IMG/VR virus record: IMGVR_UViG_3300021963_006352
Location: 1 to 35,490 of that record
Length of the DNA: 35,490 bases
DNA from: a virus
Direction: 5' to 3' (one strand)
The position numbers and the translations under genes were made by a program. Under the pieces are notes generated by a model that saw only the letters and a list, made by a program, of their open reading frames with translations, made no database searches and was not told the DNA's origin. Shown here one piece after another: positions 3,459 through 31,773 of the stretch (its first letter is position 1; the number at the start of each line of letters is the position of its first letter).

Positions 3459-4322
3459 ATGGCAAGAGTTTCGTTTTCCCAATATAGTATGTGGTCTTCA
3501 TGTCCACAACAATATAAATTGGCTTACATAGATGATTTAAGAGAATCATCATCCAATATACACTCCGTATTTGGTTCAGCAATGCACGAAACTCTACAAG
3601 AGTATTTAAGTAGATGTTTGCGTATTTCAAAATCACAAGCTGATAAAAATATGAATACAAAAGAATTCCTCAAAGAAAAGATGAGAGAGTTCTTTTTAAA
3701 AGAATCAAACGATGGGCAGAATCCAATCTGTTCCAAAGAGGAACTAGTTGAGTTTTTAGAAGATGGATATGCTATATTAGATTATTTCCAAAAATCTAAA
3801 AATTTCAACAACTTCTTTTCCTTAAAAGATGATGAGTTGATTGCTATTGAGCAACCAATCAATACTAAAATTTCAGAGCATGTAAACTTTTTAGGATTCA
3901 TTGACTTCATCGTTAAAAACAAAAAGACAGGTAGGTATCGTATTACTGATTTTAAAACATCTACAAAAGGATGGAGTAAATATCAGAAATCAGACCCTGT
4001 TAAAAACTCACAAATTTTATTGTATAAGAAATTCTACGCAGAACTGTTAGGAATATCACAAGATATAATAGATGTTGAATTCATTATATTAAAACGCAAG
4101 TTGTATGAGAATACAGACTTTGTAGTTCCTCGTATTTCAAAACACGTTCCAGCATCCGGCAAACCATCGGTAAACAAAGCATGGAAAGGGTTTAGTGATT
4201 TCGTTGAATCTGTATTTGATAAAGATGGTAATTACAGAACCGATGTAGATTATCCTAAAAATCCAACAAAGTTATGTGATTGGTGTGAGTTCAAACAAAG
4301 AGGTATTTGTAACGGAAAATAA
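3459..4322 (+). CDS. PD-(D/E)XK nuclease, Cas4/RecB-like, with probable Fe-S cluster
   Basis: Predicted DNA exonuclease of the RecB/Cas4/AddB superfamily, probably for phage recombination or DNA processing. The N-terminal SFSQYSMWSSCPQQYK resembles the RecB-type nuclease start, H43 lies in SAMHETLQEY, and the catalytic core is GFIDF (D149) followed by ITDFKTS (D164, K166). C15 with C273, C276 and C284 near the C-terminus form the one-plus-three cysteine pattern that holds a 4Fe-4S cluster in Cas4 and AddB. Length of 287 residues is normal for the stand-alone phage form. No cas1, cas2 or CRISPR repeats are present, so a CRISPR role is not supported. Confidence 0.85.
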   Translation: MARVSFSQYSMWSSCPQQYKLAYIDDLRESSSNIHSVFGSAMHETLQEYLSRCLRISKSQADKNMNTKEFLKEKMREFFLKESNDGQNPICSKEELVEFLEDGYAILDYFQKSKNFNNFFSLKDDELIAIEQPINTKISEHVNFLGFIDFIVKNKKTGRYRITDFKTSTKGWSKYQKSDPVKNSQILLYKKFYAELLGISQDIIDVEFIILKRKLYENTDFVVPRISKHVPASGKPSVNKAWKGFSDFVESVFDKDGNYRTDVDYPKNPTKLCDWCEFKQRGICNGK

Positions 4323-4571: not shown

Positions 4572-5951
4572 ATGGCAAAAAAGAAAATCCTATTACTCTC
4601 CGATGACCTTCGAATGACAAGTGGTATTGCTAATGTTTCTAAACAATTGGTGTTAGGAACGGTGGATAAATACGATTGGGTTCAGTTAGGAGCAGCAATT
4701 CAACATCCTGATGCAGGTAAAGTATTTGACTTAAATGATAATGTCAGAGAAATAACAAAAGTAGCAGATGCTTCTGTTAAAATATACCCATCGGATGGAT
4801 ATGGTAATGCTGATATTATCCGTCAGTTGTTGATGATTGAAAAACCTGATGCAATCTTACACTTTACAGACCCGAGATACTGGATTTGGTTATATGAGAT
4901 TGAGCATGAAATTCGTCAATCAGTTCCTTTATTCTTTTATCACATTTGGGATGATTTGCCAGACCCAAAATACAATAGAGATTACTACGAAAGTTGTGAT
5001 TGGATTGGAACTATTTCAAAACAAACCTACGGTATTACTAAAAGAGTTTGGGGTTGGGATAAGGAGAAGCATTGGACTAAACCGGAAGATTGGCAAGTAA
5101 GTTATGTACCACATGGTATCAATTCTGAATTGTATAAACCGGTAGATGTTCCGGCAGACTTTAAAAAATCTGTATTAGGAGATAAAGAATACGATTTCAT
5201 TTTATATTGGAATAACAGAAACATTCGTAGAAAACAACCTATGGATGCGATGTTAGCATTTGAAGAGTTCCGTAAAGCACTTGCACCAGAACATCAGGAT
5301 AAAGTTTGTATGATATTACACACCGAACCAGTTATGGAGCATGGTACAGATTTACCCACATTTGCAGAACATTGTATGCCAGATGCGGATGTTATTTTTT
5401 TACCTAACAAATATACGGAAGACCAATTAAACTATCTTTACAATTTGGCAGATGTAACAATCAATGTGGCATCAAACGAAGGATTTGGATTAGCAACTGC
5501 TGAATCTGTAATGGCAGGAACTCCAATTATCGTAAATGTAACAGGTGGATTACAAGACCAATGTGGATTTAGAGAAAGAGGAACGGGTAAATTACTAACC
5601 GCAGAAGATTATGTGGAGATTGGTTCATTACACGATAGACATAGAAAAGCAGGTGTAGTTTGGGGAGATTGGGTTAAACCTATTTGGCCAGTTCGTTCAA
5701 CAACAGGTTCAGTTCCAACACCATACATTTTTGATGATAGAGTTGATTTCCAAGATATTGCACCTTTAATTATGGACTTTTACAAAATGGGAAGAGAAGA
5801 AAGAAAAGCAGTAGGATTGAAAGGTAGAAACCACTTTTTAGGAGAAGGTAAATTAAGTTTAGAAGCAATGTGTAACTCATTATCAGATGGTATGGAAGGA
5901 GCATTTGCAAATTGGAAACCAAAAGAAAAATTTAAAGTTATAGAATTATAA
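4572..5951 (+). CDS. GT-B glycosyltransferase, GT4-like
   Basis: Predicted retaining glycosyltransferase that moves a sugar from a nucleotide-sugar donor. The N-terminal Rossmann half starts KKKILLLSDDLRMTSGIANVS, with the glycine-rich acceptor loop typical of the fold. The C-terminal half has VPHGIN and then EGFGLATAE, the E-x7-E donor motif (E303, E311), followed by MAGTPIIVNVTGG. At 459 residues it is a complete two-domain enzyme. It follows the RHH gene by 8 bases and is followed by a second GT-B gene one base away, so both belong to one operon. Donor and acceptor cannot be read from sequence. Confidence 0.9.
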   Translation: MAKKKILLLSDDLRMTSGIANVSKQLVLGTVDKYDWVQLGAAIQHPDAGKVFDLNDNVREITKVADASVKIYPSDGYGNADIIRQLLMIEKPDAILHFTDPRYWIWLYEIEHEIRQSVPLFFYHIWDDLPDPKYNRDYYESCDWIGTISKQTYGITKRVWGWDKEKHWTKPEDWQVSYVPHGINSELYKPVDVPADFKKSVLGDKEYDFILYWNNRNIRRKQPMDAMLAFEEFRKALAPEHQDKVCMILHTEPVMEHGTDLPTFAEHCMPDADVIFLPNKYTEDQLNYLYNLADVTINVASNEGFGLATAESVMAGTPIIVNVTGGLQDQCGFRERGTGKLLTAEDYVEIGSLHDRHRKAGVVWGDWVKPIWPVRSTTGSVPTPYIFDDRVDFQDIAPLIMDFYKMGREERKAVGLKGRNHFLGEGKLSLEAMCNSLSDGMEGAFANWKPKEKFKVIEL

Positions 5952-5952
5952 T

Positions 5953-7218
5953 ATGAAACCAACATTAGTATTTCAAGGTCCAGTAGCAACACGTTCGGGT
6001 TATGGAGACCATGCGAGAGATTTATTACATTCTCTATATAAATTAGATAAGTTTGATATTAAAATTGTTAGTCTTCGTTGGGGTCAAACCCCAATGGATG
6101 CTCTCAATTATGATAATGAATTTCATAAATGGATAATTGAAAACATCATTCCATCCGTTCAACAAAAACCTGATATTTTTATTCAAGTAACAGTTCCCAA
6201 CGAATTCCAACCAGTAGGATTCTACAACATTGGTATTACTGCGGCAATTGAAACAACACATTCACCTATTGAATGGGTACATGGTTGTAATAGAATGGAC
6301 TTAATTATTGTTCCATCTGAACATTCTAAAAAGAGTTTAGTTGATTCAGTTTATAATGAACAAGATAAAGCAAGTGGTCAATTGATTGCTCAGCACAAAG
6401 TTCAAAAACCAGTTGAAATTTTGTTTGAAGGATTTAATGAAAATTTTGGAACAGAACATATCCAAGAAGTTACTCAATTAGATAAAATTAAAGAAGATTT
6501 TGCATTCTTATTCGTAGGACATTGGTTGAGAGGAGATTTAGGTGAGGATAGAAAAAACATTGGAATGATGATTAAAACATTCGCAATGGCATTCAAAAAC
6601 GAAAAGGTTAAACCTGCATTGATTTTAAAAACATCATCAGCTGGATTTAGTGTATTGGATAGAGAAAATACTATTAAGAAAATCAAACAGGCATTGGGTA
6701 AAGATTACGGTTCAGTTCCTGTATATTTGATTCACGGAGATTTAACCGAAGCGGAAATGAATGGATTGTACGAACATCCAAAAGTAAAAGCAATGTTAAA
6801 CTTTACAAAAGGTGAAGGATTTGGTAGACCATTATTAGAATTCAGTTTAGCAGGTAAACCAATTTTAGTTTCTAATTGGAGTGGACATTTGGATTTCTTA
6901 AAAGAAGGTGCAGTTTTATTAGATGGAGAGTTAAAAAATGTACATCCATCGGCAGCAGACCAATTCTTATTAAAAGAAGCAAAATGGTTTAGTGTAAACA
7001 TATCAGAAGCATTGACTAAAATGAAAGATGTTTATAAGAATTATAGTAAGTATTTACCTGGTTCAACTAAATTGGCAAAAAATAACAGACAGAATTTCAG
7101 TTTACAAAAAATGACCGAAGGATTTGATGGTATTTTAAATCAATATGGTATTTATAATAAAGTACAACCAAAGTTTCAAACTTTACAATTACCTAAATTA
7201 AAATCATTAAATAAATAA
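5953..7218 (+). CDS. GT-B glycosyltransferase, GT4-like (second)
   Basis: A second full-length GT-B enzyme of 421 residues. The start FQGPVATRSGYGDHARDLL has the acceptor-side glycine loop, and EGFGRPLLE carries the E-x7-E motif (E288, E296), followed by AGKPILVSNWSGHLDFL. It differs from its upstream neighbour enough that the pair is unlikely to be a recent duplication. ATG begins one base after the upstream stop. Specificity is unknown; two GT4-type enzymes side by side suggest sequential sugar additions. Confidence 0.9.
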   Translation: MKPTLVFQGPVATRSGYGDHARDLLHSLYKLDKFDIKIVSLRWGQTPMDALNYDNEFHKWIIENIIPSVQQKPDIFIQVTVPNEFQPVGFYNIGITAAIETTHSPIEWVHGCNRMDLIIVPSEHSKKSLVDSVYNEQDKASGQLIAQHKVQKPVEILFEGFNENFGTEHIQEVTQLDKIKEDFAFLFVGHWLRGDLGEDRKNIGMMIKTFAMAFKNEKVKPALILKTSSAGFSVLDRENTIKKIKQALGKDYGSVPVYLIHGDLTEAEMNGLYEHPKVKAMLNFTKGEGFGRPLLEFSLAGKPILVSNWSGHLDFLKEGAVLLDGELKNVHPSAADQFLLKEAKWFSVNISEALTKMKDVYKNYSKYLPGSTKLAKNNRQNFSLQKMTEGFDGILNQYGIYNKVQPKFQTLQLPKLKSLNK

Positions 7219-7222
7219 TCAT

Positions 7223-7702
7223 ATGGCAGTTAGGAACTTTAATACGGCGTATCTAAATGAAGTTATGGATTCCCATAGAGTTCCTGCTGTCACTATGGTA
7301 AAAGGTAAATTTTATTCTTTACTAAATTATGTAACGGTTGGTGGTAATAAGCAAGTTACTTCTAAATCGGATTCTGCTTTAATATTTACATTATTTGTAT
7401 CTAAATCAAAAGATATAGTTCATTGTATAAAAGTATCAAATGTTAGTCCATCTATAATAAAAAGATTTTTTAAAAGATTAGTAAATTTAGATACGAGAGA
7501 AATTGAATTATCAGGAACTGCAAGAAGAACATATCAAACAGTAGTATCTAAATTTCCAGGTATTCAGGATGGAGCATATAGAACTTATAGATTAAGTAAT
7601 ATAAAAAATGTTCACGAATTGGATATGAATGTTAAATTTATAACATCTTCAAGAGATAAGGTAATTCGTATTAATCCTAGATTCCAAACACAAAATAAAT
7701 AA
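7223..7702 (+). CDS. Hypothetical phage protein, 159 aa
   Basis: No family is recognised with confidence. The protein is basic, has no signal or membrane segment, and looks mixed alpha/beta: a GKFYSLLNYVTVGG hairpin, an aliphatic strand, a helix IIKRFFKRLVNL, and a C-terminal DGAYRTYRLSNI segment. The layout recalls short T4-like phage proteins with a YRTYR-type segment, but I cannot name the function. It lies in the glycosylation operon, 4 bases after the second GT. Confidence 0.75.
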   Translation: MAVRNFNTAYLNEVMDSHRVPAVTMVKGKFYSLLNYVTVGGNKQVTSKSDSALIFTLFVSKSKDIVHCIKVSNVSPSIIKRFFKRLVNLDTREIELSGTARRTYQTVVSKFPGIQDGAYRTYRLSNIKNVHELDMNVKFITSSRDKVIRINPRFQTQNK

Positions 7703-7704
7703 TT

Positions 7705-8187
7705 ATGACATCAAAAGAATTTATCCTTTGGTTAAAAGGATTTTCAGAAGGAGTACATGAATATAATATTACTCCAAAACAATGGGATATTGTAAAAGAT
7801 AAATTAGCAGAGGTTAAAGATGAACCAACTGAATCTTTTCCGATATATCCAAAACAACCTAATACTGTACCAATACAAACATTACCATTTATACAACCAT
7901 ACGACCCATATAACCCATATAAGATAACTTGTGAAACAAATGGTACAACTGGTACAACATTGACGGTTGCAACTGGTAGTAGTGGAACTATTGTATATAA
8001 TCCATCAACATCAACCACATATGGTTATCCGAGTGGTTCTGCGTGGAATTACACAAACAATACATATGTACCATCAGCAGATATGTGGTCAGAACATCAA
8101 TCAAGAATGGCACACTATAAACCATATAATCCACCATATACAACAGGTGGAGAAGATGAAATTGTAAAACATCACAATGAAGACTAA
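7705..8187 (+). CDS. Hypothetical protein with phage-type N-terminal helix domain and Tyr/Pro/Thr-rich tail
   Basis: The first 40 residues, with FILWLKGFSEG and ITPKQWDIVKDKLAEV, form a helical motif I recall from many small tailed-phage proteins. The remaining 120 residues are low-complexity, rich in Pro, Tyr, Thr, Gly and Asn, and probably disordered. Such a tail is a plausible glycan acceptor or a virion-binding segment, given the surrounding glycosyltransferases, but that is inference. It starts 2 bases after the preceding stop and ends 3 bases before the next gene. Confidence 0.75.
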   Translation: MTSKEFILWLKGFSEGVHEYNITPKQWDIVKDKLAEVKDEPTESFPIYPKQPNTVPIQTLPFIQPYDPYNPYKITCETNGTTGTTLTVATGSSGTIVYNPSTSTTYGYPSGSAWNYTNNTYVPSADMWSEHQSRMAHYKPYNPPYTTGGEDEIVKHHNED

Positions 8188-8190
8188 AAA

Positions 8191-8817
8191 ATGAAATTAA
8201 GTTACGCAATAACTGCTTGTAATGAGCACGAAGAGATAATTAGATTAGTTACTCAATTATTAAATTACAAAGAAGAGAACTCTGAAATAGTGGTATTATT
8301 GGATACCCCAAAATCCTCACCAGAAATGATTGAGTATTTAGAGTTACAAGCAAATGCTGACAAAATTACGGTAATTGAATCGGAGTTTAGTGGTGATTTT
8401 GCACAATGGAAAAACTTTCTAAATTCAAATTGTAAAGGAGAATGGATATTTCAGTTAGATGCTGATGAGTATTTAGAACCAGATTTGATTGTAAATTTAG
8501 AAGAACTATTAGGTGCAAACGAAGATAAAGACCTGGTTGTAGTTCCTCGTATAAATACAGTTGAAGGTTTAACTCCACAACACATTCAAAAATGGGGTTG
8601 GAATGTAAATGAAAAAGGTTGGGTTAATTTTCCAGATGTTCAGACTCGTATTTACAAAAACAAAGATACAATTGGTTGGCAAGGTAAGGTTCATGAAAGG
8701 ATTGTAGGATTTGATTCTTACACTGCATTTCCTTTGGATGAGGTATATTGTATCAAACACCCAAAAACAATCGAAAGACAAGAAAGACAGAACGATTACT
8801 ACGATACTTTGATGTAA
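8191..8817 (+). CDS. Glycosyltransferase family 2 (GT-A)
   Basis: Predicted inverting GT-A enzyme. The N-terminus KLSYAITACNEHEEIIRLV is the usual GT2 opening and FQLDADEY (D90-A-D92) is the metal-binding DxD. Length of 208 residues covers only the catalytic core. The second half contains a W-rich acceptor region and a conserved-looking KVHERI motif seen in LPS core GT2 enzymes. Its stop overlaps the start of the next gene (TAATG), indicating coupling. Confidence 0.88.
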   Translation: MKLSYAITACNEHEEIIRLVTQLLNYKEENSEIVVLLDTPKSSPEMIEYLELQANADKITVIESEFSGDFAQWKNFLNSNCKGEWIFQLDADEYLEPDLIVNLEELLGANEDKDLVVVPRINTVEGLTPQHIQKWGWNVNEKGWVNFPDVQTRIYKNKDTIGWQGKVHERIVGFDSYTAFPLDEVYCIKHPKTIERQERQNDYYDTLM

Positions 8818-9476
8818 TGGTTAGAGTTTATTATCACATATACGCGGTAGAAGGTGTTGATGAAATTATAGATGAGCAATTAAGTTTAATTGAAAAAAAC
8901 TTTAACTTTCCATTTGTATTAAATGTTGGCATCTCTATTGCAAATGATAATTATTCGACAAGTAATATAATAGATAAATTCTATACTTTTAACAAACCGA
9001 ATTATCGTATCAGAGATATTAGAGTTAAAGGACACGAATTCACTACATTAGAACTTATAGAAAAAGATAAAGAAAAATTTGGAGATTCGGATTTTATTTT
9101 GTATCTTCATACCAAAGGTGCATCCAAAAGAGGAAGTGGGGAATATAGTAATATAGAAAGTTGGAGACATCTTATGAATTACTTTAATGTAGAAAGATGT
9201 GAAGATGTATTCAAAATCTTAAACAAATCGGATTATAATACATACGGTGTTTTATTTGGTAAAGCAGGTCCTTGGATGATATATTCTGGTAATTTTTGGT
9301 GGATGAAAGCATCTTACGCAAAAACTATAAATTTAGATGGAGTAAAACGAAGTAGTAGGTTTGCATCAGAACATTCATTTTTACAAATGGGTGAGGGGTG
9401 GCAACCATATTCACCATATAATAGAGAAGGGGAAAACCATTATCTAATTAATTTTAACGAAGTAGGTTATAAATAA
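8817..9476 (+). CDS. Glycosyltransferase-like protein with LHTKG motif
   Basis: I start this gene at the ATG at 8817, which overlaps the upstream stop as TAATG; the same frame is open back to 8748, but that part lies inside the upstream GT2 gene. The 219-residue protein has YLHTKGAS (LHTKG at 97-101) followed by WRHLMNYF, a pattern found in a group of bacterial polysaccharide glycosyltransferases. A later segment with FWWMKASY is consistent with an acceptor pocket. There is no classical DxD. The fold call is moderate; its place among GTs supports it. Confidence 0.65.
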   Translation: MVRVYYHIYAVEGVDEIIDEQLSLIEKNFNFPFVLNVGISIANDNYSTSNIIDKFYTFNKPNYRIRDIRVKGHEFTTLELIEKDKEKFGDSDFILYLHTKGASKRGSGEYSNIESWRHLMNYFNVERCEDVFKILNKSDYNTYGVLFGKAGPWMIYSGNFWWMKASYAKTINLDGVKRSSRFASEHSFLQMGEGWQPYSPYNREGENHYLINFNEVGYK

Positions 9477-10345
9477 TGAAAATAACATTCATATACGATT
9501 ACAAAGATGGTGAGACATGGTCTACACCAATGGCACTCTTAAACGAATTCAAAGAAAGAGGATGGGAAACCGAAATAGTTCCAATTACGGCAAATGATGA
9601 TTCTGCATTACAATTATGGATTCAACAAGATATTCCAACGGATATTGTGTTGTTTATGGATTGGGGTAGAATTGATTCAAAATGGTTGGATAAATCATTA
9701 AAACCTAACACATTTTGGATACAAGAAAGTGGAGATGACCCACAGAACTTTGAAAGAAACTCTCCCAAAGCAGATAGATTTCATTTTACAATTACACCTG
9801 ATAAACAATGTGCAGAAGCATATAAAAAGAAGGGTATAAATGCTGAATGGATAAATCACTTTGCAGATACGGCAGTTCAATTCCCTATGAATTTAGAACC
9901 AAAACACGTTGCAGTTACCAGTAGAGGAATTGGTAATTCGGCATTTTTAGATTACATCACAAGATGGGCAGAAGGAGCAATTGGTAATCGTAATGGATTA
10001 AATGCAAAAGAACATACGGAGTTTTTGAATACCGGTTTAATGGTTATTCAGAATAGTAGATGGAAAGAAATCACTCGTAGAATATTCGAAGGAATGGCAT
10101 GTGGTAAAATGGTTTTAACCGATAGATTGCCAGAAGAAACAGGTCTTTCTGAAATGTTTATAGATGGAGAAGATATTGTGTATTACGATGAGATGTTTGA
10201 TTGTATAGAGAAGATGAACTACTACAATGAAAACGAAGATGAGAGAGAAAGAATAGCACATAATGGAATGATAAAAGTATTACACAATTACACACAAATT
10301 CAAGTAGTAGATAAACTAATAGAAGAATTTAAAAAGCACAAATAA
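9476..10345 (+). CDS. GT-B glycosyltransferase, CgeB-like
   Basis: The 289-residue protein combines an N-terminal Rossmann-like half (KITFIYDYKDGETWSTPMALL; IQESGDDP) with a C-terminal half carrying RIFEGMACGKMVLTDRLPE (E205) and MFIDGEDIVYYD. This is the C-terminal signature of the CgeB and related GT1-like enzymes. It overlaps both neighbours by one base (TAATG). The first domain is short for a GT-B, so it may be a compact version. The donor is unknown. Confidence 0.8.
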   Translation: MKITFIYDYKDGETWSTPMALLNEFKERGWETEIVPITANDDSALQLWIQQDIPTDIVLFMDWGRIDSKWLDKSLKPNTFWIQESGDDPQNFERNSPKADRFHFTITPDKQCAEAYKKKGINAEWINHFADTAVQFPMNLEPKHVAVTSRGIGNSAFLDYITRWAEGAIGNRNGLNAKEHTEFLNTGLMVIQNSRWKEITRRIFEGMACGKMVLTDRLPEETGLSEMFIDGEDIVYYDEMFDCIEKMNYYNENEDERERIAHNGMIKVLHNYTQIQVVDKLIEEFKKHK

Positions 10346-10908
10346 TGACATTTTCAGAATTTTACGAAGCTTCGGATTTCAAAAGTGATAAGGGTACAAC
10401 GCATGATTATATCAATGGTTGGTATTCGGATGAATTTACATCTAAACGAAATGATAAATTAAAAATATTAGAAATAGGAGTACATAGAGGACCTTCTATG
10501 AAACTATTACGTGATTGGTTTATTAATTCCGAAATAACAGGCATAGACCCATTTGGAGATGGATTACCCGAAGGTATTGCAGATGATATTAGAAAAATGG
10601 GAGATATAACTATTATCCAAGATGACGCATATACAGAAAAAGTATTAAATATGTTTGAAGATAATTCAATTGATTATTTAATAGATGATGGACCGCATAC
10701 ATTGGATTCTCAATTATTTGCGATAGAGTATTGGTTTCCAAAAGTAAAAAAAGGTGGTACTATGATTATCGAAGATATACAAAAATTTGATAGAGATAAA
10801 GAAAAAATAGATGAGTTGTGTTTGCAATTGGGATTAAATTATGAAACAATTGATTTGAGAAACAATAAGGATAGATATGATGATGTTCTTTTAATATTTA
10901 GAAAATAA
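10345..10908 (+). CDS. Class I SAM-dependent methyltransferase
   Basis: Motif I KILEIGVHRGPS (40-51) forms the SAM-binding loop, TGIDPF places an acidic residue (D68) at the end of strand 2, and DYLIDDGPH (110-118) is the strand-4 region. These features resemble sugar O-methyltransferases of the MycE type and cephalosporin-hydroxylase-like proteins. Being embedded among glycosyltransferases, a sugar methyltransferase acting on the assembled glycan is the most likely role. It starts on the upstream stop (TAATG). Protein or DNA substrates cannot be excluded. Confidence 0.82.
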   Translation: MTFSEFYEASDFKSDKGTTHDYINGWYSDEFTSKRNDKLKILEIGVHRGPSMKLLRDWFINSEITGIDPFGDGLPEGIADDIRKMGDITIIQDDAYTEKVLNMFEDNSIDYLIDDGPHTLDSQLFAIEYWFPKVKKGGTMIIEDIQKFDRDKEKIDELCLQLGLNYETIDLRNNKDRYDDVLLIFRK

Positions 10909-10911
10909 AAT

Positions 10912-11553
10912 ATGAAATATAGCATAGTAATTCCAACACTTTGGAAATCAGACAGAACTAAAAAACTACTTTCAGATTTAAATGAGTGCGAGTATGTTGA
11001 TGAGATTATTGTAATAAATAATCAATTGACGGATGTATTGGATGGGAAAGTAGAAAAAGTTAGACATGTTTCATTTGGTAAAAACATTTATGTAAATCCA
11101 GCTTGGAATTGGGGAATACATAATGCTAAAAACAATCACATTGCATTACTAAACGATGATATAAACTTTAATCCAAACATATTTGAATTAATAACCGAAG
11201 ATGTATTAAATCAATTTGGTATTATTGGTATGGGTGAGGGTAATTATAAATCCTTAAACATAGAAGGTGACCCTATATTAGAAGTTTGGCAACCAGGTGT
11301 AAACGATTGGGGTTGGGGTTGTTTTATTATGTTGAATAAAAAAGATTGGATTGATATTCCAGATAATATAAAAATATGGTATGGGGATAATATCATAAAA
11401 GATGTAAATCCTGCACCAAAAGCAGTATTACGAAATTTTAGAGTTGATACTGAAATGAGTACAACATCGGATGAACCTATTTGGGACGAGATAAAGAAAG
11501 AAGATTACAATAACTTTATAAACTATTTAAGAAATGCAAAAACTACCAATTAG
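10912..11553 (+). CDS. Glycosyltransferase family 2-like
   Basis: A 213-residue GT-A-like enzyme. KYSIVIPTLWKSDRTKKLL and EIIVINNQ are the first two strands of the nucleotide-binding fold, and ALLNDDINF (N81-D82-D83) sits where the DxD is expected. VWQPGVNDWGWGCFIML resembles the acceptor-loop G-W segment of GT2 enzymes. Its 3' end overlaps the next gene by 20 bases. Substrate not readable. Confidence 0.8.
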   Translation: MKYSIVIPTLWKSDRTKKLLSDLNECEYVDEIIVINNQLTDVLDGKVEKVRHVSFGKNIYVNPAWNWGIHNAKNNHIALLNDDINFNPNIFELITEDVLNQFGIIGMGEGNYKSLNIEGDPILEVWQPGVNDWGWGCFIMLNKKDWIDIPDNIKIWYGDNIIKDVNPAPKAVLRNFRVDTEMSTTSDEPIWDEIKKEDYNNFINYLRNAKTTN

Positions 11554-12277
11554 TATAGGGATATTAGCTTGGAATAGTGGACAGGTATTGGTAGATACTT
11601 TAACTACATACCACAATAACGGATTGTTTGATATAGTAAACGATGCTACTATTTTATTTCAGGAAGCATCTATGCAAGATTATGAAATTGCAAAACATTT
11701 TGGATTAGATTGTATAGGGTTGCAAAAAAACATTGGTATCGGTAAAGCATTCATCAAACTAACCGAAAATGCACAAACTGAAAATGTAATGGTGTTGGAG
11801 CATGATTGGAATCTAATAGAAGATAAAGCAACCACATACCAAAGATTAGAATCTGGTTTAGAAATGCTAGATGGTAGTGTAAATGTAGTTAGATACAGAC
11901 ATAGAAAGTATCCAGGTATTCCACATTTTTCATTCAAATATATTGGTAAAGAACTTACTTACTATGATGATGAAATTGGATGTCAATCTCCACACTTATT
12001 AGATTCAGTACATTGGTGTGACCCTAAAAAAGAATTTCCTCAGCATATCGGTCAATTTGGTGAATACTTTTTAACATCATCTCGTTATGGTAATTGGACA
12101 AACAACCCTTGCTTATACAAAAAACAATTTTATTTAGATACTGTATCACAATTTGCAGGAGATGGTATTGCATTAGAAGGTAATATATCTAAATGGTGGG
12201 CACAACAAAACTATGGTGTGGCACATGGGGAGGGTTTATTTATGCATAACGATTGGGGTAAATACGGAAGAAGATAA
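11534..12277 (+). CDS. Glycosyltransferase-like protein (GT2-type)
   Basis: ISIGILAWNSGQVLVDTL opens like a GT2 enzyme, QKNIGIGKAF resembles the GxG donor-side helix, and VMVLEHDWNLIED (E89-H90-D91) occupies the metal-motif position in a variant form. The 247-residue length fits a GT-A core. It overlaps the upstream gene by 20 bases and the downstream gene by one. The altered DxD makes the catalytic call less certain than for its neighbours. Confidence 0.7.
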   Translation: MQKLPISIGILAWNSGQVLVDTLTTYHNNGLFDIVNDATILFQEASMQDYEIAKHFGLDCIGLQKNIGIGKAFIKLTENAQTENVMVLEHDWNLIEDKATTYQRLESGLEMLDGSVNVVRYRHRKYPGIPHFSFKYIGKELTYYDDEIGCQSPHLLDSVHWCDPKKEFPQHIGQFGEYFLTSSRYGNWTNNPCLYKKQFYLDTVSQFAGDGIALEGNISKWWAQQNYGVAHGEGLFMHNDWGKYGRR

Positions 12278-13032
12278 TGAAAGATTTGGTTATATCGGCA
12301 ATTGCAAACTATTTGCCAGAAAAGATTAAAATATATGTTGAATCACTAAACGATTGTGGATACAATGGTGATAAAGTGATGATATGTTATAATATACCAA
12401 AAGAAACAATTGATTATTTAACAGATAAAGGTTGGGAATGCTATGGTGCTGAATTGCAAGGCCATCCTCATATGAGAAGATTGATTGATATGTGGTGGTT
12501 CTTACAAAACGATGAAAGAGAGTGGAATCATATAATTACAACAGATGTAAGAGATATTGTATGGCAAACAAACCCGTCCGATTGGTTAAAACTAACTAAT
12601 AAAAACAAAATCATTTGTGCATCCGAATGTGTTACATATGAGAACGAACCGTGGGGTCATAAAAACATACACGAAGGATACGGACCTATGTTTTGGGATT
12701 GGGTTAAACAAAACACAATTGGTAATGTAGGTGTGATTGCTGGAAAACACAAATTAGTAAAAGATTTATTGATGTTGAATTGGTTAGTATCACAATCGGG
12801 AGATGTTAGACATTTTACAGACCAAAGTTCTTTTAATTTTGTAATACACAATGAACTTATAAAAGATAAAATTGATATAAACGTTGATTTTGCATTGCAA
12901 GTTGGAACTACAAAAATTGATTTTAAAATAGAAAATGATTTAGTTATGAATGGAGATGTGCCATTTGTGTTAGTACATCAATACGATAGAAATCCAGAAC
13001 TAAATACTTTAATAACAAACAAATACAAATGA
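12277..13032 (+). CDS. Putative glycosyltransferase with TDVRD motif
   Basis: The protein begins with a Rossmann-like strand (DLVISAIANYLPEKIKIYVESL) and has HIITTDVRDIVWQTNP (D90, D93), a motif at the DxD position of several GT-A enzymes acting on glycans (T-D-x-R-D-x-x-x-Q-x-x-P). A later NVGVIAGKHKLVKDLL and DQSSFNFV fit the acceptor side and the D-Q pair of that group. At 251 residues it is complete. ATG overlaps the upstream stop and its own stop overlaps the next ATG (ATGA). Confidence 0.68.
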   Translation: MKDLVISAIANYLPEKIKIYVESLNDCGYNGDKVMICYNIPKETIDYLTDKGWECYGAELQGHPHMRRLIDMWWFLQNDEREWNHIITTDVRDIVWQTNPSDWLKLTNKNKIICASECVTYENEPWGHKNIHEGYGPMFWDWVKQNTIGNVGVIAGKHKLVKDLLMLNWLVSQSGDVRHFTDQSSFNFVIHNELIKDKIDINVDFALQVGTTKIDFKIENDLVMNGDVPFVLVHQYDRNPELNTLITNKYK

Positions 13033-13943
13033 AAAAAATAGTTATTACAACATTTATAATGCCAAATGAAATAGATGATTTGGAAAGATTGTTAGCAGAC
13101 TTAAACAAAGCATCTAAACATATAGATGGTAATAATTATGAGTTATACTTAGCACTTTCAGTTGATGATTATTTGGTTAATTGGGAAGAATCTAAATTGG
13201 ATAAAGAGTTTTTCATCAACAGATTCAATGCACTAAAACCTTTGACAGAGTGGGCAGGCAAAACAACATTTAATGTTAGAGATGATATTATGGGTTGTAC
13301 TTCTTTAAGAAGAGTTGCTCATAACGAATGTAAAGATGCTACTCACTTTATTTGGTTGGATACTGATATTGTATTTGATGAAAAGTTATTGTTTTATATA
13401 GATGAAAGTGTGGATGCACTAGAAAATTCTCAAATTACAATAGGAAAAACTATTTCAAAATATGTTATTAGTCCAGAATGTGTTAAAATATGGGATTCAA
13501 CTTGGGATTGTTTAGTGAATGAAAATTTCTTAAATAAAGAAGAAGGTTATTGTAGAACAAATAATCCATATATAGATGCGGGTGAATATGGTGATGTTAG
13601 TTTGGAAATAGTAACTAATAATGTACCTGGACAACCAAGAATGAAGTTTGGTGGTGGTTGGTTTAATTGTTTATCAAAAGCATTATTAGATAGAGTTCCT
13701 TTACCAGAATCTATGGGTCACTATGGTCCAGATGATACTTATGTAATGTGGGCAAGTGAAAAGGTAATTCAAAAAGGAGAAGAGTTGTATCAGTTTAAAT
13801 TAAAAAATCAGGTAGTTTGTGAAAACTATATTTATAGAGATAGAACTCACTATGATAAGTTGATAAAACGAATTGATAGAAAAGACGAGTTTAGAAATCA
13901 AGCAAACACATCATTTGCAAACGAAATAAATAAATTACAATAG
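13029..13943 (+). CDS. Glycosyltransferase family 2-like
   Basis: A 304-residue GT-A-like protein: KKIVITTFIMPNEIDDLERLL at the start, HFIWLDTDIVFDEKLL with a clean DxD (D111, D113), and MKFGGGWFNCLSKALLDRVPLPESMGHYGPDDTYVMWA as a typical acceptor and catalytic-base region with a conserved Asp pair. It overlaps the upstream gene by 4 bases and abuts the oxygenase gene (TAGTG). It is the last glycosyltransferase of the operon. Confidence 0.8.
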   Translation: MKKIVITTFIMPNEIDDLERLLADLNKASKHIDGNNYELYLALSVDDYLVNWEESKLDKEFFINRFNALKPLTEWAGKTTFNVRDDIMGCTSLRRVAHNECKDATHFIWLDTDIVFDEKLLFYIDESVDALENSQITIGKTISKYVISPECVKIWDSTWDCLVNENFLNKEEGYCRTNNPYIDAGEYGDVSLEIVTNNVPGQPRMKFGGGWFNCLSKALLDRVPLPESMGHYGPDDTYVMWASEKVIQKGEELYQFKLKNQVVCENYIYRDRTHYDKLIKRIDRKDEFRNQANTSFANEINKLQ

Positions 13944-14620
13944 TGGAAGAATTAAAAAAACAATTACAAGAAAAAGGATATACATTTTTTAAGATGCAAG
14001 ATTATCCAGAATTTAAAGATGAATATGAATATTATAAAAAATACATATGTAGTTCTGAAAATAATTTATTAAAATATATAAACTCTGTTAGATTTGATAG
14101 TGAATCTTTAAAACTAAATATTAATTGTGAATCATTTGAAGAGGCAGAAGAAAGGGTAAATCAAGAACGTTTAAAAATTACAAAATACGATAAGTCGCAT
14201 AGTCAATATTGGTTTTATGGAGAACCTATTGTTATAACAAATTCATTTAGACCACTCATAAACAAAATTGTTAATATTTTTTATAATGAAAACTCAGAAG
14301 AATATAAACACATTCTATCAATAACATACTATAAACCCGAATGTTTTTTAAAAGCTCACAGAGATGGACAAACCGGGACTAGATTATGTGCAGTTTTAAT
14401 TTATTTAAATGATGAAGAATATAAACCTGAATGGGGTGGTAACATTGTTTTTGAAGGAACAGAATCGGTTAATCCAACATATGGAAATGTTGCTATATTA
14501 GATTTTAAAGAAGGTAATTGTTTACATGAAGTTAAAAAAGTAATAGATGGATATGGTAGATATGCTATTTTAGATTTTATAAGTTCAGAAGATGTAGGAA
14601 ATACACCTAACCATTATTAG
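13943..14620 (+). CDS. 2OG-Fe(II) oxygenase, prolyl-4-hydroxylase-like
   Basis: Predicted iron- and 2-oxoglutarate-dependent hydroxylase. The double-stranded beta-helix core carries the iron ligands H139 and D141 (AHRDG) and H195 (CLHEV), and R206 (GYGRYAI) is placed to bind 2OG. The order YYKPECFLKAHRDG, LIYLND, GGNIVF resembles the prolyl hydroxylase branch more than the TET/JBP nucleobase branch. The start is GTG, overlapping the upstream stop as TAGTG. Placement at the end of a glycosyltransferase operon suggests hydroxylation of an acceptor (protein residue or sugar). Confidence 0.88.
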   Translation: MEELKKQLQEKGYTFFKMQDYPEFKDEYEYYKKYICSSENNLLKYINSVRFDSESLKLNINCESFEEAEERVNQERLKITKYDKSHSQYWFYGEPIVITNSFRPLINKIVNIFYNENSEEYKHILSITYYKPECFLKAHRDGQTGTRLCAVLIYLNDEEYKPEWGGNIVFEGTESVNPTYGNVAILDFKEGNCLHEVKKVIDGYGRYAILDFISSEDVGNTPNHY

Positions 14621-15316: not shown

Positions 15317-15619
15317 ATGGAAAATATATATTCAGTATTAATTACGGCAATAACAGTATTAGGTGGAACGGGTGCATGGAGATTCTATGAAAAGAGAGCA
15401 ATAGCAAGAGAAAAAGATGAGGATTTCATCAGACACGATTGCAAAGATAGAATTTCTAAATTGGAAGCATTATTATCCGAATCATCAAAAGAAAAAGATT
15501 CTTTAAGAGATATGGTATTGGCACTTACAAAAGAAGTTGCTGCACTATCTGTTAAAGTAGAATACCTTACAAAAGAAAACGATAAATTATCCAAAGGTAA
15601 AAAAACATTAAATGGCTAA
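15317..15619 (+). CDS. Membrane-anchored coiled-coil protein, 100 aa
   Basis: One N-terminal hydrophobic segment (about residues 5-20, YSVLITAITVLGGTGAWRFY) is followed by a basic patch and a heptad-like coiled coil (about 45-92) ending in a Lys-rich tail. Small phage proteins with this build include spanin-type i-components and membrane anchors, but no lysis partner gene adjoins it, so a lysis role is not supported. It starts 2 bases after the upstream stop and overlaps the next gene by 8 bases. Confidence 0.75.
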   Translation: MENIYSVLITAITVLGGTGAWRFYEKRAIAREKDEDFIRHDCKDRISKLEALLSESSKEKDSLRDMVLALTKEVAALSVKVEYLTKENDKLSKGKKTLNG

Positions 15620-16433
15620 GATTCTACAAGAATGTATTATTGTATCCAAAGAGGTTGATGATAAGTTCATTCTAGCAAAGAATAGAGATAGAGCTTATGC
15701 ACCAACTCTTGAAATTGTACATACTATAATGGATGGGATTGAAGTTGCTTATCTACACGATACAACAACCGATTGGAGTGAAGGTATGAATGAAAATGGT
15801 ATAGGTGTTGTGAACTCTGCTCTATTGGTAGGACACGATGAGGCAGAACATAAGATTGTAAAGAAGGGTGGTAAACCTGGACCTGATGGTGATAAAATGA
15901 GAAATATCATCAAACAACCTACATTAAAAGATGCTATAAAAGCAGCAGTAACATATAAAGGAAAGAGTGGTTTATCGTTAAAAGGTCACACATTCGTATC
16001 ATCTGCAAAACAAATGGTTAGTATTGAAACCACATCAAAACATAAACCAGATATTCAAATACAAAATACAGAATCACCGGTAGTTCGTACAAATCACGGA
16101 CATATGTTTACAGATGCTGGATACACACATGGTGAGAAATATCTTTCATCACAAATGAGAAAAATATCAGCAGAGAAATCGGTTGATAAAGTGGACGATT
16201 GGAAAGAAATTGCACATGCTATGAGAAAAGAGTTTTTTCCAAAAAGACCACAGATGAATATGAAAAGAGATACAAATCAAATGTCTACATCATCACAAAC
16301 GGTTATGAATCTTACGGATAAGATATTGCAAATTACATATTTTAAAGATAAGGTTAAGGAGTTTAAGGGGATTAATAGTAATTTACCAGAAGGGTATATT
16401 CCTAAAATTAAAATAGAAGTAATAGAAGCATAA
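15612..16433 (+). CDS. Ntn-hydrolase-like protein (C45/acyltransferase-type), putative
   Basis: Features resemble the N-terminal-nucleophile hydrolases related to penicillin acyltransferase (peptidase family C45): a near-N-terminal Cys (C8), AKNRDR about 15 residues later, WSEGMNENGIGVVNSALL in the central sheet, and VRTNHGHMF as the Asn/His-containing motif. In this family a Cys exposed by self-cleavage attacks an amide bond; here seven residues would have to be removed before C8. Length of 273 residues is a little short. The family call is from motif order only. Substrate unknown; an amidase role on a peptide, quorum signal or acylated sugar is possible. Confidence 0.55.
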   Translation: MAKILQECIIVSKEVDDKFILAKNRDRAYAPTLEIVHTIMDGIEVAYLHDTTTDWSEGMNENGIGVVNSALLVGHDEAEHKIVKKGGKPGPDGDKMRNIIKQPTLKDAIKAAVTYKGKSGLSLKGHTFVSSAKQMVSIETTSKHKPDIQIQNTESPVVRTNHGHMFTDAGYTHGEKYLSSQMRKISAEKSVDKVDDWKEIAHAMRKEFFPKRPQMNMKRDTNQMSTSSQTVMNLTDKILQITYFKDKVKEFKGINSNLPEGYIPKIKIEVIEA

Positions 16434-17107
16434 TGTTTTCAAAATCTGCAACATCTGGTATTTGGAACGGTAAAAAAGTGGAGTTCGGTAAGGTTTATGG
16501 AAACCCTATGGCAACTGCATTTGGGCAAGTTAAAGAGGATATGGGAAAAAAGTTACGAGTATTTGATTTCGATGATACATTAGTTCAGACTAAATCACAT
16601 ATATACATCACACATAAAGACGGTAAAAAATCCAAATTAACTCCTGGTGAGTATGCAGTATATGAACCAAAAAGTGGTGATAAGTTTGATTTTTCTGATT
16701 TTGAAAAAGTAAAACAACCACAAGAAATTAAAGGTGTTACCGATTTGTTAAGAAAAATTGCAAAAGCAGAGGGAGAACGAAAGATTGTAATATTAACTGC
16801 GAGGGGTGCATATAGACCAGTTAAGGATTATTTACAAGATATTGGGTTAAGCGATATATATGTTGTTGCATTGAATAGTGCTGACCCACAAGATAAAGCA
16901 GATTGGATAGAGCAAAAGATTAAGGAGGGATATAACGATGTATTCTTCATTGATGACTCTCATAAGAATGTACAAGCAGTTCAAAAATTGGAAAAGAAAT
17001 ACCCTGATATTAAATTGCAAGTTAGACATGTCCAACACAATGTACCTGCACCACCAAAAGAAACAAACGAATTAAAATTAAAATCATTATTACCTAATAA
17101 GTTATGA
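16433..17107 (+). CDS. HAD-superfamily phosphatase-like protein
   Basis: Motif I VFDFDDTLV (nucleophile D45, acid D47) begins the HAD core, IVILTARG is motif II, and VFFIDDSHKNVQAV is motif IV with the acidic metal-binding pair. About 40 N-terminal residues precede the core. The gene is coupled to its upstream neighbour (TAATG) and overlaps the downstream kinase gene by 4 bases (ATGA). A phosphatase beside a P-loop kinase recalls polynucleotide kinase/phosphatase pairs, but the kinase is of the APS type, so a small-molecule phosphatase is equally likely. Confidence 0.8.
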   Translation: MFSKSATSGIWNGKKVEFGKVYGNPMATAFGQVKEDMGKKLRVFDFDDTLVQTKSHIYITHKDGKKSKLTPGEYAVYEPKSGDKFDFSDFEKVKQPQEIKGVTDLLRKIAKAEGERKIVILTARGAYRPVKDYLQDIGLSDIYVVALNSADPQDKADWIEQKIKEGYNDVFFIDDSHKNVQAVQKLEKKYPDIKLQVRHVQHNVPAPPKETNELKLKSLLPNKL

Positions 17108-17550
17108 TATACCTTTTTACAGGTCAACCAGGAAGTGGTAAAACTACTCTGGCAAAGAAGTTACAATTTTGGTTACAAACCGATAAGAAAAATTGGAGAA
17201 AAGATGTATTCCACATCGATGGTGACCAATTGAGAGAACTATTCCCTAATACAGATTATTCCAAAGAAGGTAGAGAGAAAAACATTCAAAAGGCATTTGA
17301 TATTGCAAAATATTTGGATAGTTGTGGTAGTGATGTGGTAATATCAATGGTATCCCCATATAGAGAACTAAGAGAACAACTTAAATCGGAATGCAAAGTA
17401 AGAGAAATTTACTGCCATACCAAAAAAATGAGAGGTAGAGAAAAGTTTTTTGCATTAGATTATGAAACTCCTATTGAATTTTATGTAGATTTGGATACAT
17501 CTAAACAACCTGATGAAACTTTTAGTAATTTATTGAAGTTTTTAATTTAA
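17104..17550 (+). CDS. P-loop kinase, adenylylsulfate (APS) kinase-like
   Basis: Walker A GQPGSGKTT (7-15), HIDGDQLRELF (37-47, the D-G-D substrate motif), a REKNIQKAFDIAKYL helix (57-71) and VVISMVSPYRELR (78-90) follow the APS kinase (CysC) order. The family phosphorylates adenylylsulfate to PAPS, the sulfate donor for sulfotransferases. At 148 residues it is shorter than cellular CysC. No ATP sulfurylase or sulfotransferase is in the window, so the substrate could differ, such as a nucleotide or sugar. It overlaps the HAD gene by 4 bases. Confidence 0.75.
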   Translation: MIYLFTGQPGSGKTTLAKKLQFWLQTDKKNWRKDVFHIDGDQLRELFPNTDYSKEGREKNIQKAFDIAKYLDSCGSDVVISMVSPYRELREQLKSECKVREIYCHTKKMRGREKFFALDYETPIEFYVDLDTSKQPDETFSNLLKFLI

Positions 17551-17588: not shown

Positions 17589-18161
17589 ATGGAAGAAGAT
17601 GAAGAAGTTACTGGCTTTTTTCCCAATTTGGAAAATAGCAGAAGTGTTAAAAGGGGATTAGGAGCTCAACCTCTTTTAGAATCACAAATCAGAGCAGCAC
17701 AATCAAAATCCGCATCGGCATTTGAAGCAGCAAGAACATTAGGTGTTTCATATAACACATACAAAAAGTATGCAAAGTTATATGGGGTGTTTGATGATTT
17801 AAAAAATCCGTATGGTATTGGTATTCAGAAAGCAAAAGCAATTAAGAATAAGAAGTATCACATAGATGATTTAATTGCAGGAAAGCATATCAAATACCCA
17901 TTACACAAATTTAAGAATAAACTATTTGATAGCGGATATGTTCCGAAAGTATGTGGTAGTTGTGGATTTAGTGAAGAGAGAATAACCGATGGTAAAATGC
18001 CATTACTAATAGATTTTCTAGATGGAAATTTAAATAACAGAAAATTAGAAAATATCAGACCATTATGTTATAATTGTTTCTTCTTATTGGTAGGAGAAAG
18101 AAATGTAAAGAATTGGTATGATGAAAATGGTATGCCAGATGAAGAAGATATACAGGAGTAA
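17589..18161 (+). CDS. HNH-like zinc protein with degenerate active site, plus HTH-like region
   Basis: The C-terminal half has the HNH zinc frame VCGSCGF (C122, C125) and RPLCYNC (C160, C163), with DGNLNNRKLENIRPL between, as in phage HNH endonucleases. The catalytic His pair normally just before DG is replaced (LIDFLDG, D142/F143), and the residue after the last CxxC is Phe where His is usual. Nuclease activity is therefore doubtful; DNA binding may remain. Residues 41-66 (SASAFEAARTLGVSYNTYKKYAKLYG is the region) look like a helix-turn-helix. It heads an operon with the GHMP kinase, whose start lies 23 bases inside it. Confidence 0.75.
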   Translation: MEEDEEVTGFFPNLENSRSVKRGLGAQPLLESQIRAAQSKSASAFEAARTLGVSYNTYKKYAKLYGVFDDLKNPYGIGIQKAKAIKNKKYHIDDLIAGKHIKYPLHKFKNKLFDSGYVPKVCGSCGFSEERITDGKMPLLIDFLDGNLNNRKLENIRPLCYNCFFLLVGERNVKNWYDENGMPDEEDIQE

Positions 18162-24790: not shown

Positions 24791-25039
24791 ATGGAAACCG
24801 AACTTAAAGAAGAAAAAGTATTAGTTCTTAAAAGAGTTCCACCAGGGGATAGATGGGTATTTGCCGATGGTTCATCCAAAAGCGTTTATCCATCTCTTAC
24901 CGATGGGTTGGAAGCTTGGTTTCAAGTTAATGGAGATACTAATTTCTATATTGAAGCAAGAAAAGGAACAGTAGAAATTGTTAGAGAAGAAGAAGTTGAT
25001 GTTCCAGTAAAACGGTTCTCACTATATGGGGAAGACTAA
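24791..25039 (+). CDS. Hypothetical protein, 82 aa
   Basis: No family recognised. A small, mixed, soluble protein with PPGDRWVFADGSSKSVYPSLTDGLEAWFQ in the middle and an acidic VEIVREEEVDV strand near the end. ATG lies one base after the upstream stop and its last 14 bases overlap the nucleotidyltransferase gene, so it is probably translated in the same operon. Confidence 0.72.
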   Translation: METELKEEKVLVLKRVPPGDRWVFADGSSKSVYPSLTDGLEAWFQVNGDTNFYIEARKGTVEIVREEEVDVPVKRFSLYGED

Positions 25040-25454
25040 AACATTAGTAATAGTAAGTGGTTATTTCAATCCGGTTCATAAAGGACATATTGATTATTTA
25101 AGACGAAGCAAAGAGCTTGGAGACGAGCTCTTTGTTATTGTCAATAATGATTATCAAAGAGCATTAAAAGGTTCTACTGAATTTATGAAACAAGAGGAGA
25201 GGTATGAAATTGTATCAAATCTAAAACAAGTAGATTGGGCAATTATTGCAATAGATAAAAATAGAGAGGTTGCAAAAACAGTTCAATTAATCTACGAAAC
25301 TCACAAAGATAGTTATGATAAATTTATATTTGCCAATGGTGGAGACCAACTAACACATTCTATTTCAGAAAAATCTATGTGTGATAAGTTGGGTATCGAA
25401 ATGATATTTGGTATGGGAGATAAAATACAATCTTCTTCGTGGTTATTAAAATAA
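25026..25454 (+). CDS. Nucleotidyltransferase, HldE domain II/TagD-like
   Basis: The short cytidylyltransferase fold is clear: VSGYFNPVHKGHIDYLRRSKELGDELFVIVNND, with HxGH at H18-H21 (nucleotide-binding), KGSTEFMKQEER, FANGGD, and a C-terminal QSSSWLL (135-141) equivalent to the ISSTxL motif. Relatives join CTP to glycerol-3-phosphate or ATP to heptose-1-phosphate. With the HddA-like kinase at 18139, activation of a heptose is a plausible role, but choice of sugar or alcohol cannot be read. It overlaps the upstream gene by 14 bases. Confidence 0.85.
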   Translation: MGKTKTLVIVSGYFNPVHKGHIDYLRRSKELGDELFVIVNNDYQRALKGSTEFMKQEERYEIVSNLKQVDWAIIAIDKNREVAKTVQLIYETHKDSYDKFIFANGGDQLTHSISEKSMCDKLGIEMIFGMGDKIQSSSWLLK

Positions 25455-31772: not shown

Positions 31773-31773
31773 T

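What the first reader, a model, noticed from the sequence alone, without database searches (positions are those of the whole stretch)
4572..14620. A 10-kb phage glycosylation island with nine glycosyltransferase-like genes, a methyltransferase and an oxygenase
Three GT-B and six GT-A or GT-A-like enzymes of clearly different sequence sit in one coupled operon with a SAM methyltransferase and a 2OG oxygenase. This many different enzymes implies assembly of a long, decorated glycan, not addition of a single sugar. Targets could be the virion (capsid or tail proteins), phage DNA, or the host O-antigen. The Tyr/Pro/Thr-rich protein at 7705 is a candidate acceptor.
Basis: partly seen in the sequence, partly recalled or inferred. 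Interest (0 to 1): 0.78.

Follow-up and report, generated by a model that had tools for sequence, protein, structure and literature searches.

The report
Phage glycan-building gene island
A large aquatic phage, probably of Flavobacteria, carries a 13-gene operon with about nine sugar-transfer enzymes; four of its genes are nearly invariant in the phage lineage and the rest are swapped, which suggests that the phage coats its own particles with a variable sugar chain.

Summary
In detail: 4572-14620 is one tight + strand operon of 13 genes. Five are glycosyltransferases (GTs) by profile, one is GT-A by predicted fold, three are GT-A-like on weak evidence; with them come a methyltransferase and a prolyl-hydroxylase-type oxygenase. 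The contig is from a T4-type phage of a large aquatic, probably Flavobacteria-infecting lineage (kin: Immutovirus). In 80 relatives found through the neighbouring nuclease, GTB1, GTB2, the 159-aa gene and GTA1 are almost invariant (62/63, 46/46, 31/31, 30/31 where enough DNA is held). The other GTs vary, and decorating genes are exchanged. The 159-aa protein resembles the T4 DNA-end protector gp2 in predicted structure only. I found no membrane, flippase, polymerase or lipid-carrier enzyme, and four 179-209 kb relatives with the GTs lack any thymidylate-synthase/hydroxymethylase gene. I therefore favour cytosolic glycosylation of a virion protein (0.55) over host-surface change (0.22) and DNA glycosylation (0.06). 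The proposed acceptor at 7705 is weak: one relative with the whole GT set has lost its Ser/Thr/Tyr/Pro-rich tail. Phage GT clusters are known (P-SSM2, moraphages); the constant-core, variable-periphery layout appears undescribed in the literature I could search.

The parts
3459..4322 (+). PD-(D/E)XK nuclease (RecB/Cas4-like); left border and anchor of the island
   Evidence: PHROG exonuclease 1e-26; GTB1 follows it in 62 of 63 nuclease-anchored loci
4572..5951 (+). GTB1, GT4-type GT-B glycosyltransferase, lineage core; EGFGLATAE keeps the E-x7-E motif
   Evidence: PF00534 4e-9; only PDB sequence match is chlorovirus glycosyltransferase B736L, 1.5e-8; homologs in Immutovirus, Mel-JY01, RM378, LR756508
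5953..7218 (+). GTB2, GT4-type GT-B glycosyltransferase, lineage core; EGFGRPLLE motif
   Evidence: phrog_2170 glycosyltransferase 2e-19; 46 of 46 nuclease-anchored loci with enough DNA
7223..7702 (+). g159, probable T4 gp2-like DNA end protector (virion head completion); lineage core, fast evolving
   Evidence: AlphaFold2 pLDDT 82; Foldseek to annotated DNA terminal/end protectors, E 6e-4 and 1.6e-3; 31 of 31 loci; dN/dS 0.25-0.70; no sequence-level support
7705..8187 (+). g160, short N-terminal domain plus disordered-looking Ser/Thr/Tyr/Pro-rich tail; function unknown
   Evidence: phrog_28500 (unknown function) 8e-9; ortholog tails median 35% S+T+Y, 23% P+G; L061 has no tail
8191..8817 (+). 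GTA1, GT2-type GT-A glycosyltransferase, lineage core
   Evidence: PF00535 6e-13; 30 of 31 loci; homologs in Immutovirus, Mel-JY01, RM378
8817..9476 (+). U219, GT-A-fold glycosyltransferase by predicted structure
   Evidence: AlphaFold2 pLDDT 63; top structural neighbours nearly all GT-A enzymes, Z 11.7
9476..10345 (+). GTB3, GT-B glycosyltransferase
   Evidence: PF13524 3e-22
10345..10908 (+). SAM methyltransferase (Methyltransf_24); exchangeable cargo
   Evidence: PF13578 5e-9; 3 of 10 fully spanned islands
10912..11553 (+). GTA2, GT2-type GT-A glycosyltransferase
   Evidence: PF00535 2e-5, above cut-off
11534..12277 (+). GTA3, GT-A-like (invariant EHDW)
   Evidence: weak match to solved glycosyltransferase 5tze, E 0.085
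12277..13032 (+). GTA4, GT-A-like (invariant DxxD)
   Evidence: Pfam-negative itself; scattered weak hits of homologs to GT8/GT77-type models
13029..13943 (+). GTA5, GT-A-like (invariant DxD)
   Evidence: Pfam-negative itself; invariant D111 and D113; weak GT hits in the pooled GTA4/GTA5 homolog scan
13943..14620 (+). 2OG-Fe(II) oxygenase of prolyl-hydroxylase type; exchangeable cargo
   Evidence: PF13661/PF13640 1e-9; PKHD/P4H structures by profile; 4 of 10 islands, replaced by a GDxFS-motif (SGNH-hydrolase-like) protein in L019 and L061
14670..15314 (+). s214, conserved protein forming the right border
   Evidence: present at 52-92% identity in the 10 loci that reach it

Best explanation
The island encodes soluble, cytosolic enzymes that build an oligosaccharide sugar by sugar directly on a phage structural protein before or during assembly. 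GTB1, GTB2 and GTA1, constant through the lineage, would make the acceptor-proximal core. The next tier (U219, GTB3, GTA2-5), constant in the window's subclade, would extend it. An exchangeable set (methyltransferase, oxygenase, SGNH-like hydrolase, acetyltransferase, epimerase, aminotransferase) would decorate the outer sugars, so related phages display different glycans, perhaps to avoid phage-binding host or grazer factors or to tune adsorption. Shown: gene content, order, conservation, purifying selection, absence of recognised lipid-linked and hydroxymethyl-pyrimidine machinery. Inferred: acceptor, order of addition, sugars, benefit.
For: (1) Four genes (GTB1, GTB2, g159, GTA1) are almost never lost in nuclease-anchored loci at 50-96% nuclease identity (62/63, 46/46, 31/31, 30/31): a constitutive function, unlike an optional moron. 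(2) A gene whose predicted structure resembles the virion protein gp2 sits inside the operon. (3) All island proteins look soluble (hydropathy scan only), and relatives have no recognised initiating phosphoglycosyltransferase, flippase or polymerase, with controls ringing. (4) No thymidylate synthase/hydroxymethylase in G001, G002, G010, G011, which have the GT core; no C5-methyltransferase in G001, G002. (5) Cargo is typical of surface-glycan diversification. (6) Precedents: chloroviruses glycosylate their capsid protein in the cytoplasm with at least eight virus-encoded GTs (PMC7019647), and GTB1's only PDB match is a chlorovirus GT; mycobacteriophage capsids and tail tubes carry glycans (as cited in PMC12619734).
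Against: No virion glycan has been measured and no acceptor identified. The gp2 likeness is structural only (TM 0.3-0.45 to the annotated end protectors) and has no profile support; gp2 is known from T4 as an internal head protein, so it marks timing at best. The left neighbours are replication genes, where DNA-modification genes could also sit. The phage carries other envelope-directed genes (outer-membrane receptor at 19548), which fits host-surface remodelling too. A host lipid carrier and export system could be borrowed, so absence of phage copies is not proof.
Confidence: 0.55

Rival explanations
1. The enzymes remodel the host cell surface (LPS, O-antigen, capsule or surface glycoproteins) to block superinfection, as proposed for the P-SSM2-type clusters of T4-like cyanophages.
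For: The same mix of GTs, epimerases and HIGH nucleotidyltransferases is read this way for cyanophages (PMC7824862). The window has an HddA-like sugar kinase (18118), a HIGH-type nucleotidyltransferase (25026) and a phage-lineage Oar/TonB-type outer-membrane receptor.
Against: No membrane protein in the island, and no initiating phosphoglycosyltransferase, flippase or polymerase in relatives. The core is almost never lost, whereas superinfection-exclusion genes are usually sporadic (general knowledge).
Confidence: 0.22
2. The enzymes glycosylate phage DNA bases (T4-like or multi-sugar DNA hypermodification) against restriction.
For: Some phages hypermodify DNA with several GTs (Pyle et al. 2024, seen only as a citation in PMC12619734). 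The island lies next to gp44, gp62 and a nuclease.
Against: Four 179-209 kb relatives with the GT core have no thymidylate-synthase-family hydroxymethylase, and G001 and G002 no C5-methyltransferase. The oxygenase is prolyl-hydroxylase-like, not TET/JBP-like, and is missing from 6 of 10 islands.
Confidence: 0.06
3. The acceptor is encoded in the operon: the fast-evolving g159 or the Ser/Thr/Tyr/Pro-rich g160 is glycosylated, as in adhesin-glycosylation loci that pair acceptor and GT genes.
For: Both evolve faster than flanking GTs (g159 42%, g160 54% median identity against about 82%). The g160 tail is Ser/Thr/Tyr/Pro-rich in most orthologs. The oxygenase is of prolyl-hydroxylase type.
Against: g160 lacks its tail in L061, which has all nine GTs, and is recognisable in 17 of 31 loci. 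g159 resembles a head-internal protein.
Confidence: 0.12
4. The products make a free soluble glycan or metabolite rather than modifying a macromolecule.
For: Not excluded; a halogenated sugar/amino-acid metabolite was suggested for a second cyanophage cluster (PMC7824862).
Against: Nine different GTs exceed what a small metabolite needs, and no carrier or export gene was recognised.
Confidence: 0.05

Closest known systems
Core glycosyltransferases of moraphages (aquatic T4-related jumbo phages of Bacteroidota; PMC12619734)
   Same: Large aquatic phages with Bacteroidota hosts; four GT orthogroups among genes shared by at least 80% of genomes; target left open
   Different: No operon layout, constant-core/variable-cargo structure or machinery test appears in the parts of that paper I read; I did not match their orthogroups to these genes by sequence
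GT cluster of Immutovirus (Flavobacterium phage vB_FspM_immuto_2-6A, MW353175)
   Same: Nuclease - small gene - GTB1 - GTB2 - ~152-aa protein - GTA1 in the same order
   Different: Cargo differs (two WecE-type aminotransferases, epimerase, PglD-like, other GTs); its 152-aa protein was not detected by the g159 profile
P-SSM2-type LPS/capsule gene clusters of T4-like cyanophages (PMC7824862)
   Same: Multi-GT cluster with epimerases, methyltransferases, 2OG oxygenases and HIGH nucleotidyltransferases
   Different: Described as sporadic and polymorphic; here a core is nearly invariant with a gp2-like gene embedded
Chlorovirus capsid glycosylation (PBCV-1; PMC7019647)
   Same: Virus-encoded GTs without signal peptides acting in the cytoplasm; at least eight GTs; methylated sugar
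   Different: Eukaryotic virus; glycan and acceptor there are solved, here unknown
Mycobacteriophage virion glycosylation (Freeman et al. 2023, known here through PMC12619734)
   Same: Phage GTs modify the phage's own structural proteins
   Different: There demonstrated by experiment; here inferred from genes alone

Membership tests
Phage DNA-glucosylation systems (T4 type) | Route to hydroxymethyl-pyrimidine (thymidylate-synthase-family hydroxymethylase, or C5-methyltransferase plus TET/JBP) | tested here: not met
   PF00303 absent from G001, G002, G010, G011 though GTB2 is present; PF00145 absent from G001, G002; PF12851 absent but without positive control. Records are linear and may lack an end
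Phage DNA-glucosylation systems (T4 type) | Glycosylated bases in virion DNA | not testable with these tools
   Needs LC-MS of virion DNA
Wzx/Wzy- or lipid-carrier-dependent O-antigen/capsule loci | Initiating phosphoglycosyltransferase, flippase and polymerase | tested here: not met
   PF02397, PF13440, PF04932 absent from all relatives searched while controls ring; no TM protein in the island. WecA-type PF00953 and ABC export were not searched
P-SSM2-type cyanophage glycan clusters | Several GT families clustered with sugar-modifying enzymes in a T4-like phage | tested here: met
P-SSM2-type cyanophage glycan clusters | Product displayed on the host surface (the published proposal) | not testable with these tools
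   Given as a suggestion for cyanophages in the text read
Virus-encoded cytosolic virion glycosylation (chlorovirus / mycobacteriophage) | GTs soluble, without signal peptides or TM segments | tested here: met
   Hydropathy scan of all island proteins; simple method
Virus-encoded cytosolic virion glycosylation (chlorovirus / mycobacteriophage) | Glycan on a virion protein | not testable with these tools
   Needs virion glycoproteomics
Immutovirus-type nuclease-GTB1-GTB2-GTA1 locus | Same gene order and homologous core GTs | tested here: met
T4 gp2 DNA end protectors (g159) | Shared fold | tested here: inconclusive
   Foldseek E 6e-4 and 1.6e-3 to annotated end protectors but TM 0.3-0.45; no profile or tblastn support
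Moraphage lineage | Membership in the published clade (TerL/MCP/PolB tree) | not tested
   Genomes of that study were not identified in the collections used

The most novel reading that the evidence does not exclude
A widespread lineage of large Bacteroidota phages builds a long, strain-specific glycan on its own virion entirely in the host cytosol, with an invariant core and an exchangeable periphery organised like an O-antigen locus but without lipid carrier, flippase or ligase: a bacterial-virus counterpart of chlorovirus capsid glycosylation, possibly with a hydroxylated acceptor or sugar.
Probability: 0.35. Interest if true: 0.8.

Novelty: new variant of a known kind. Interest (0 to 1): 0.55.

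Why it matters
If right, virion glycosylation is a constitutive property of a common freshwater phage lineage, and the swapping of decorating genes would be a form of virion antigenic variation. It would give a cultivable test case (Immutovirus on Flavobacterium) for why phages glycosylate particles and a source of new soluble glycosyltransferases. It also argues against naming such clusters host LPS or DNA-modification genes by default.

Tried and rejected
DNA near-identity search gave only a 59-bp match to Immutovirus. g160 as obligate acceptor was rejected as primary reading (tail-less L061; 17 of 31 loci); its N-terminal domain has no tblastn match in phage records. DNA glycosylation was tested through hydroxymethylase, C5-methyltransferase and TET/JBP searches and is not supported. 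Lipid-linked export was tested with three families; none found. Late-promoter evidence: ATAAATA-like words lie 8-18 nt before several starts, too close for promoters and possibly leader sequence, so inconclusive; Bacteroidota-type TAnnTTTG boxes precede the genes at 1079, 3459 and 22933 but not GTB1 directly. hhalign among the island's own shallow profiles did not link GTA3-5 or U219 to GTA1/GTA2, so GTA3-5 rest on weak evidence. PDB profile searches for U219 and GTA4 found no GT and for GTA5 only dynein, judged spurious. PDB structural comparison of g159 gave only matches at Z 5.2 or less, mostly small beta-barrel domains. An empty site without the GT core was sought: G012 lacks GTB2 but also lacks the nuclease, so the locus is probably just not on that contig.
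Full report
WHAT IS THERE. The window is a 35.5-kb linear virus record. It reads PolB end, dUTPase, clamp-loader gp44 and gp62, a PD-(D/E)XK nuclease, the island, then a conserved block, a large outer-membrane protein, GroEL and a lysin. In 4572-14620 thirteen + strand genes are spaced by -20 to +4 nt. Five are GTs by profile. A sixth (8817-9476) has no Pfam hit, but its AlphaFold2 model, although of modest confidence (pLDDT 63), has structural neighbours that are nearly all GT-A enzymes. Three more (11534, 12277, 13029) keep invariant acidic motifs and give only weak GT hits. The methyltransferase and oxygenase are real; the oxygenase is of prolyl-hydroxylase type with an intact metal site.

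WHOSE IT IS. The nearest named relatives are Flavobacterium phages of Immutovirus, Microcystis phage Mel-JY01 and, more remotely, Rhodothermus phage RM378 and LR756508. Immutovirus and Mel-JY01 keep nuclease-GTB1-GTB2-GTA1; RM378 has GTB1 followed by a weak GTB2 homolog and, a little further on, two GTA1-like genes. The full-length Oar/TonB-type receptor in the window is 55-66% identical to its best Flavobacterium and other Bacteroidota relatives, which points to a Flavobacteria-type host. Relatives with the locus run to 198-287 kb. This fits the published moraphages, aquatic phages of Bacteroidota whose near-core genes include four GT orthogroups of undecided target (PMC12619734); I could not test membership.

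CONSTANT CORE, VARIABLE PERIPHERY. To avoid selecting on GTs I anchored on the nuclease with a profile reaching 50% identity. Among 80 loci, where enough DNA follows, GTB1 is present in 62 of 63, GTB2 in 46 of 46, the 159-aa gene in 31 of 31 and GTA1 in 30 of 31; g160 in 17, U219 in 12 and GTB3 in 14 of 31 (these last three can be undercounted where the stretch held is short). Within the window's own subclade, ten relatives span the island to its right border, and all nine GTs plus both small genes are in 10 of 10, but the methyltransferase is in 3 and the oxygenase in 4; in two an SGNH-like (GDxFS-motif) protein stands in the oxygenase's place. Elsewhere the variable slots hold NAD-dependent epimerases, DegT aminotransferases, HAD-nucleotidyltransferase fusions, hexapeptide acetyltransferases, FkbM and C-methyltransferases and further GTs. 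GT genes show dN/dS of 0.03-0.34 and the two small genes 0.17-0.70.

THE 159-AA GENE. Its model (pLDDT 82) matches one uncharacterised phage protein over its length, then DNA terminal/end protector proteins (the gp2 family) of a Serratia phage and an Ackermannviridae phage at E 6e-4 and 1.6e-3, with P-HM2 Gp2 and a Tenacibaculum phage end protector lower down. TM-scores are modest and no sequence profile agrees, so this is a likely fold relation, not proof. If right, a late virion gene lies inside the GT operon.

TESTING TARGETS. DNA: G001 (198.5 kb), G002 (201.9 kb), G010 and G011 have the GT core but no thymidylate-synthase-family gene; G001 and G002 have no C5-methyltransferase; TET/JBP was absent from the records searched but without positive control. 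Thymidylate synthase is sporadic in the lineage, unlike the GT core. Host surface by lipid-linked assembly: no island protein has a TM-like segment (two single hydrophobic stretches lie inside soluble-type cargo proteins of relatives), and Bac_transf, Polysacc_synt_3 and Wzy_C were absent while controls rang. The host could still supply these. In-operon acceptor: g160 has a Ser/Thr/Tyr/Pro-rich tail in most orthologs but none in L061, which keeps all nine GTs.

MOST LIKELY MECHANISM. Cytosolic stepwise glycosylation of a virion protein, with the constant trio making the core and swapped enzymes the periphery. Chloroviruses do this with at least eight virus-encoded GTs in the cytoplasm (PMC7019647), and the only PDB sequence match of GTB1 is a chlorovirus GT (that B736L is a chlorovirus protein is my own knowledge). 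Mycobacteriophage capsids and tail tubes are glycosylated (as reported in PMC12619734). The main rival, host-surface change against superinfection, is the published reading of similar cyanophage clusters (PMC7824862) and gains some support from the phage's outer-membrane receptor; I give it 0.22. Acceptor, sugars and linkage remain unknown; the assignment is by genes alone.

NOVELTY. Phage GT clusters, virion glycosylation and GTs in moraphages are known. The near-invariant four-gene core with a gp2-like gene, the swapped cargo and the exclusion tests seem not to have been described in the papers I could search; subscription papers were mostly out of reach. I rate it a new variant of a known kind.

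Noticed in passing
19548-22826: Phage-encoded 1092-aa Oar/TonB-type outer-membrane receptor with an N-terminal hydrophobic (signal-like) segment (PF13620, PF25183). About 15 related viral contigs carry it at 71-94% identity while the best bacterial relatives are 55-66%, so it belongs to the phage lineage; possible receptor decoy or superinfection exclusion.
   Followed up: partly
30138-34768: Two large proteins with N-terminal hydrophobic segments and C-terminal cohesin-like domains (544 and 766 aa), then two lipoprotein-like genes: an apparent envelope or secretion module in a phage.
   Followed up: no
18118-19167 and 25026-25454: HddA-like GHMP sugar kinase (322 bits, below the curated cut-off) and a HIGH-type nucleotidyltransferase resembling the HldE adenylyltransferase domain; may supply a heptose-type sugar nucleotide.
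   Followed up: partly
7223-7702: g159 diverges much faster (42% median identity) than the GTs on its left (82-83%) although it was found in every nuclease-anchored locus long enough to hold it; unexplained.
   Followed up: partly
L063, L065, L067, between gp62 and the nuclease: In these relatives a homolog of the island's 2OG oxygenase sits upstream of the nuclease instead of at the right end, so this gene moves between two slots.
   Followed up: no
L003:18001-19492: GTB1 is split into two ORFs in Microcystis phage Mel-JY01; its relatives point to Bacteroidota hosts, so the stated Microcystis host deserves a check.
   Followed up: no
15612-16433 and 17104-17550: Weakly AAT-like (acyl-transferase/Ntn-hydrolase family) and APS-kinase-like genes in the conserved block right of the island; roles unknown.
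   Followed up: no
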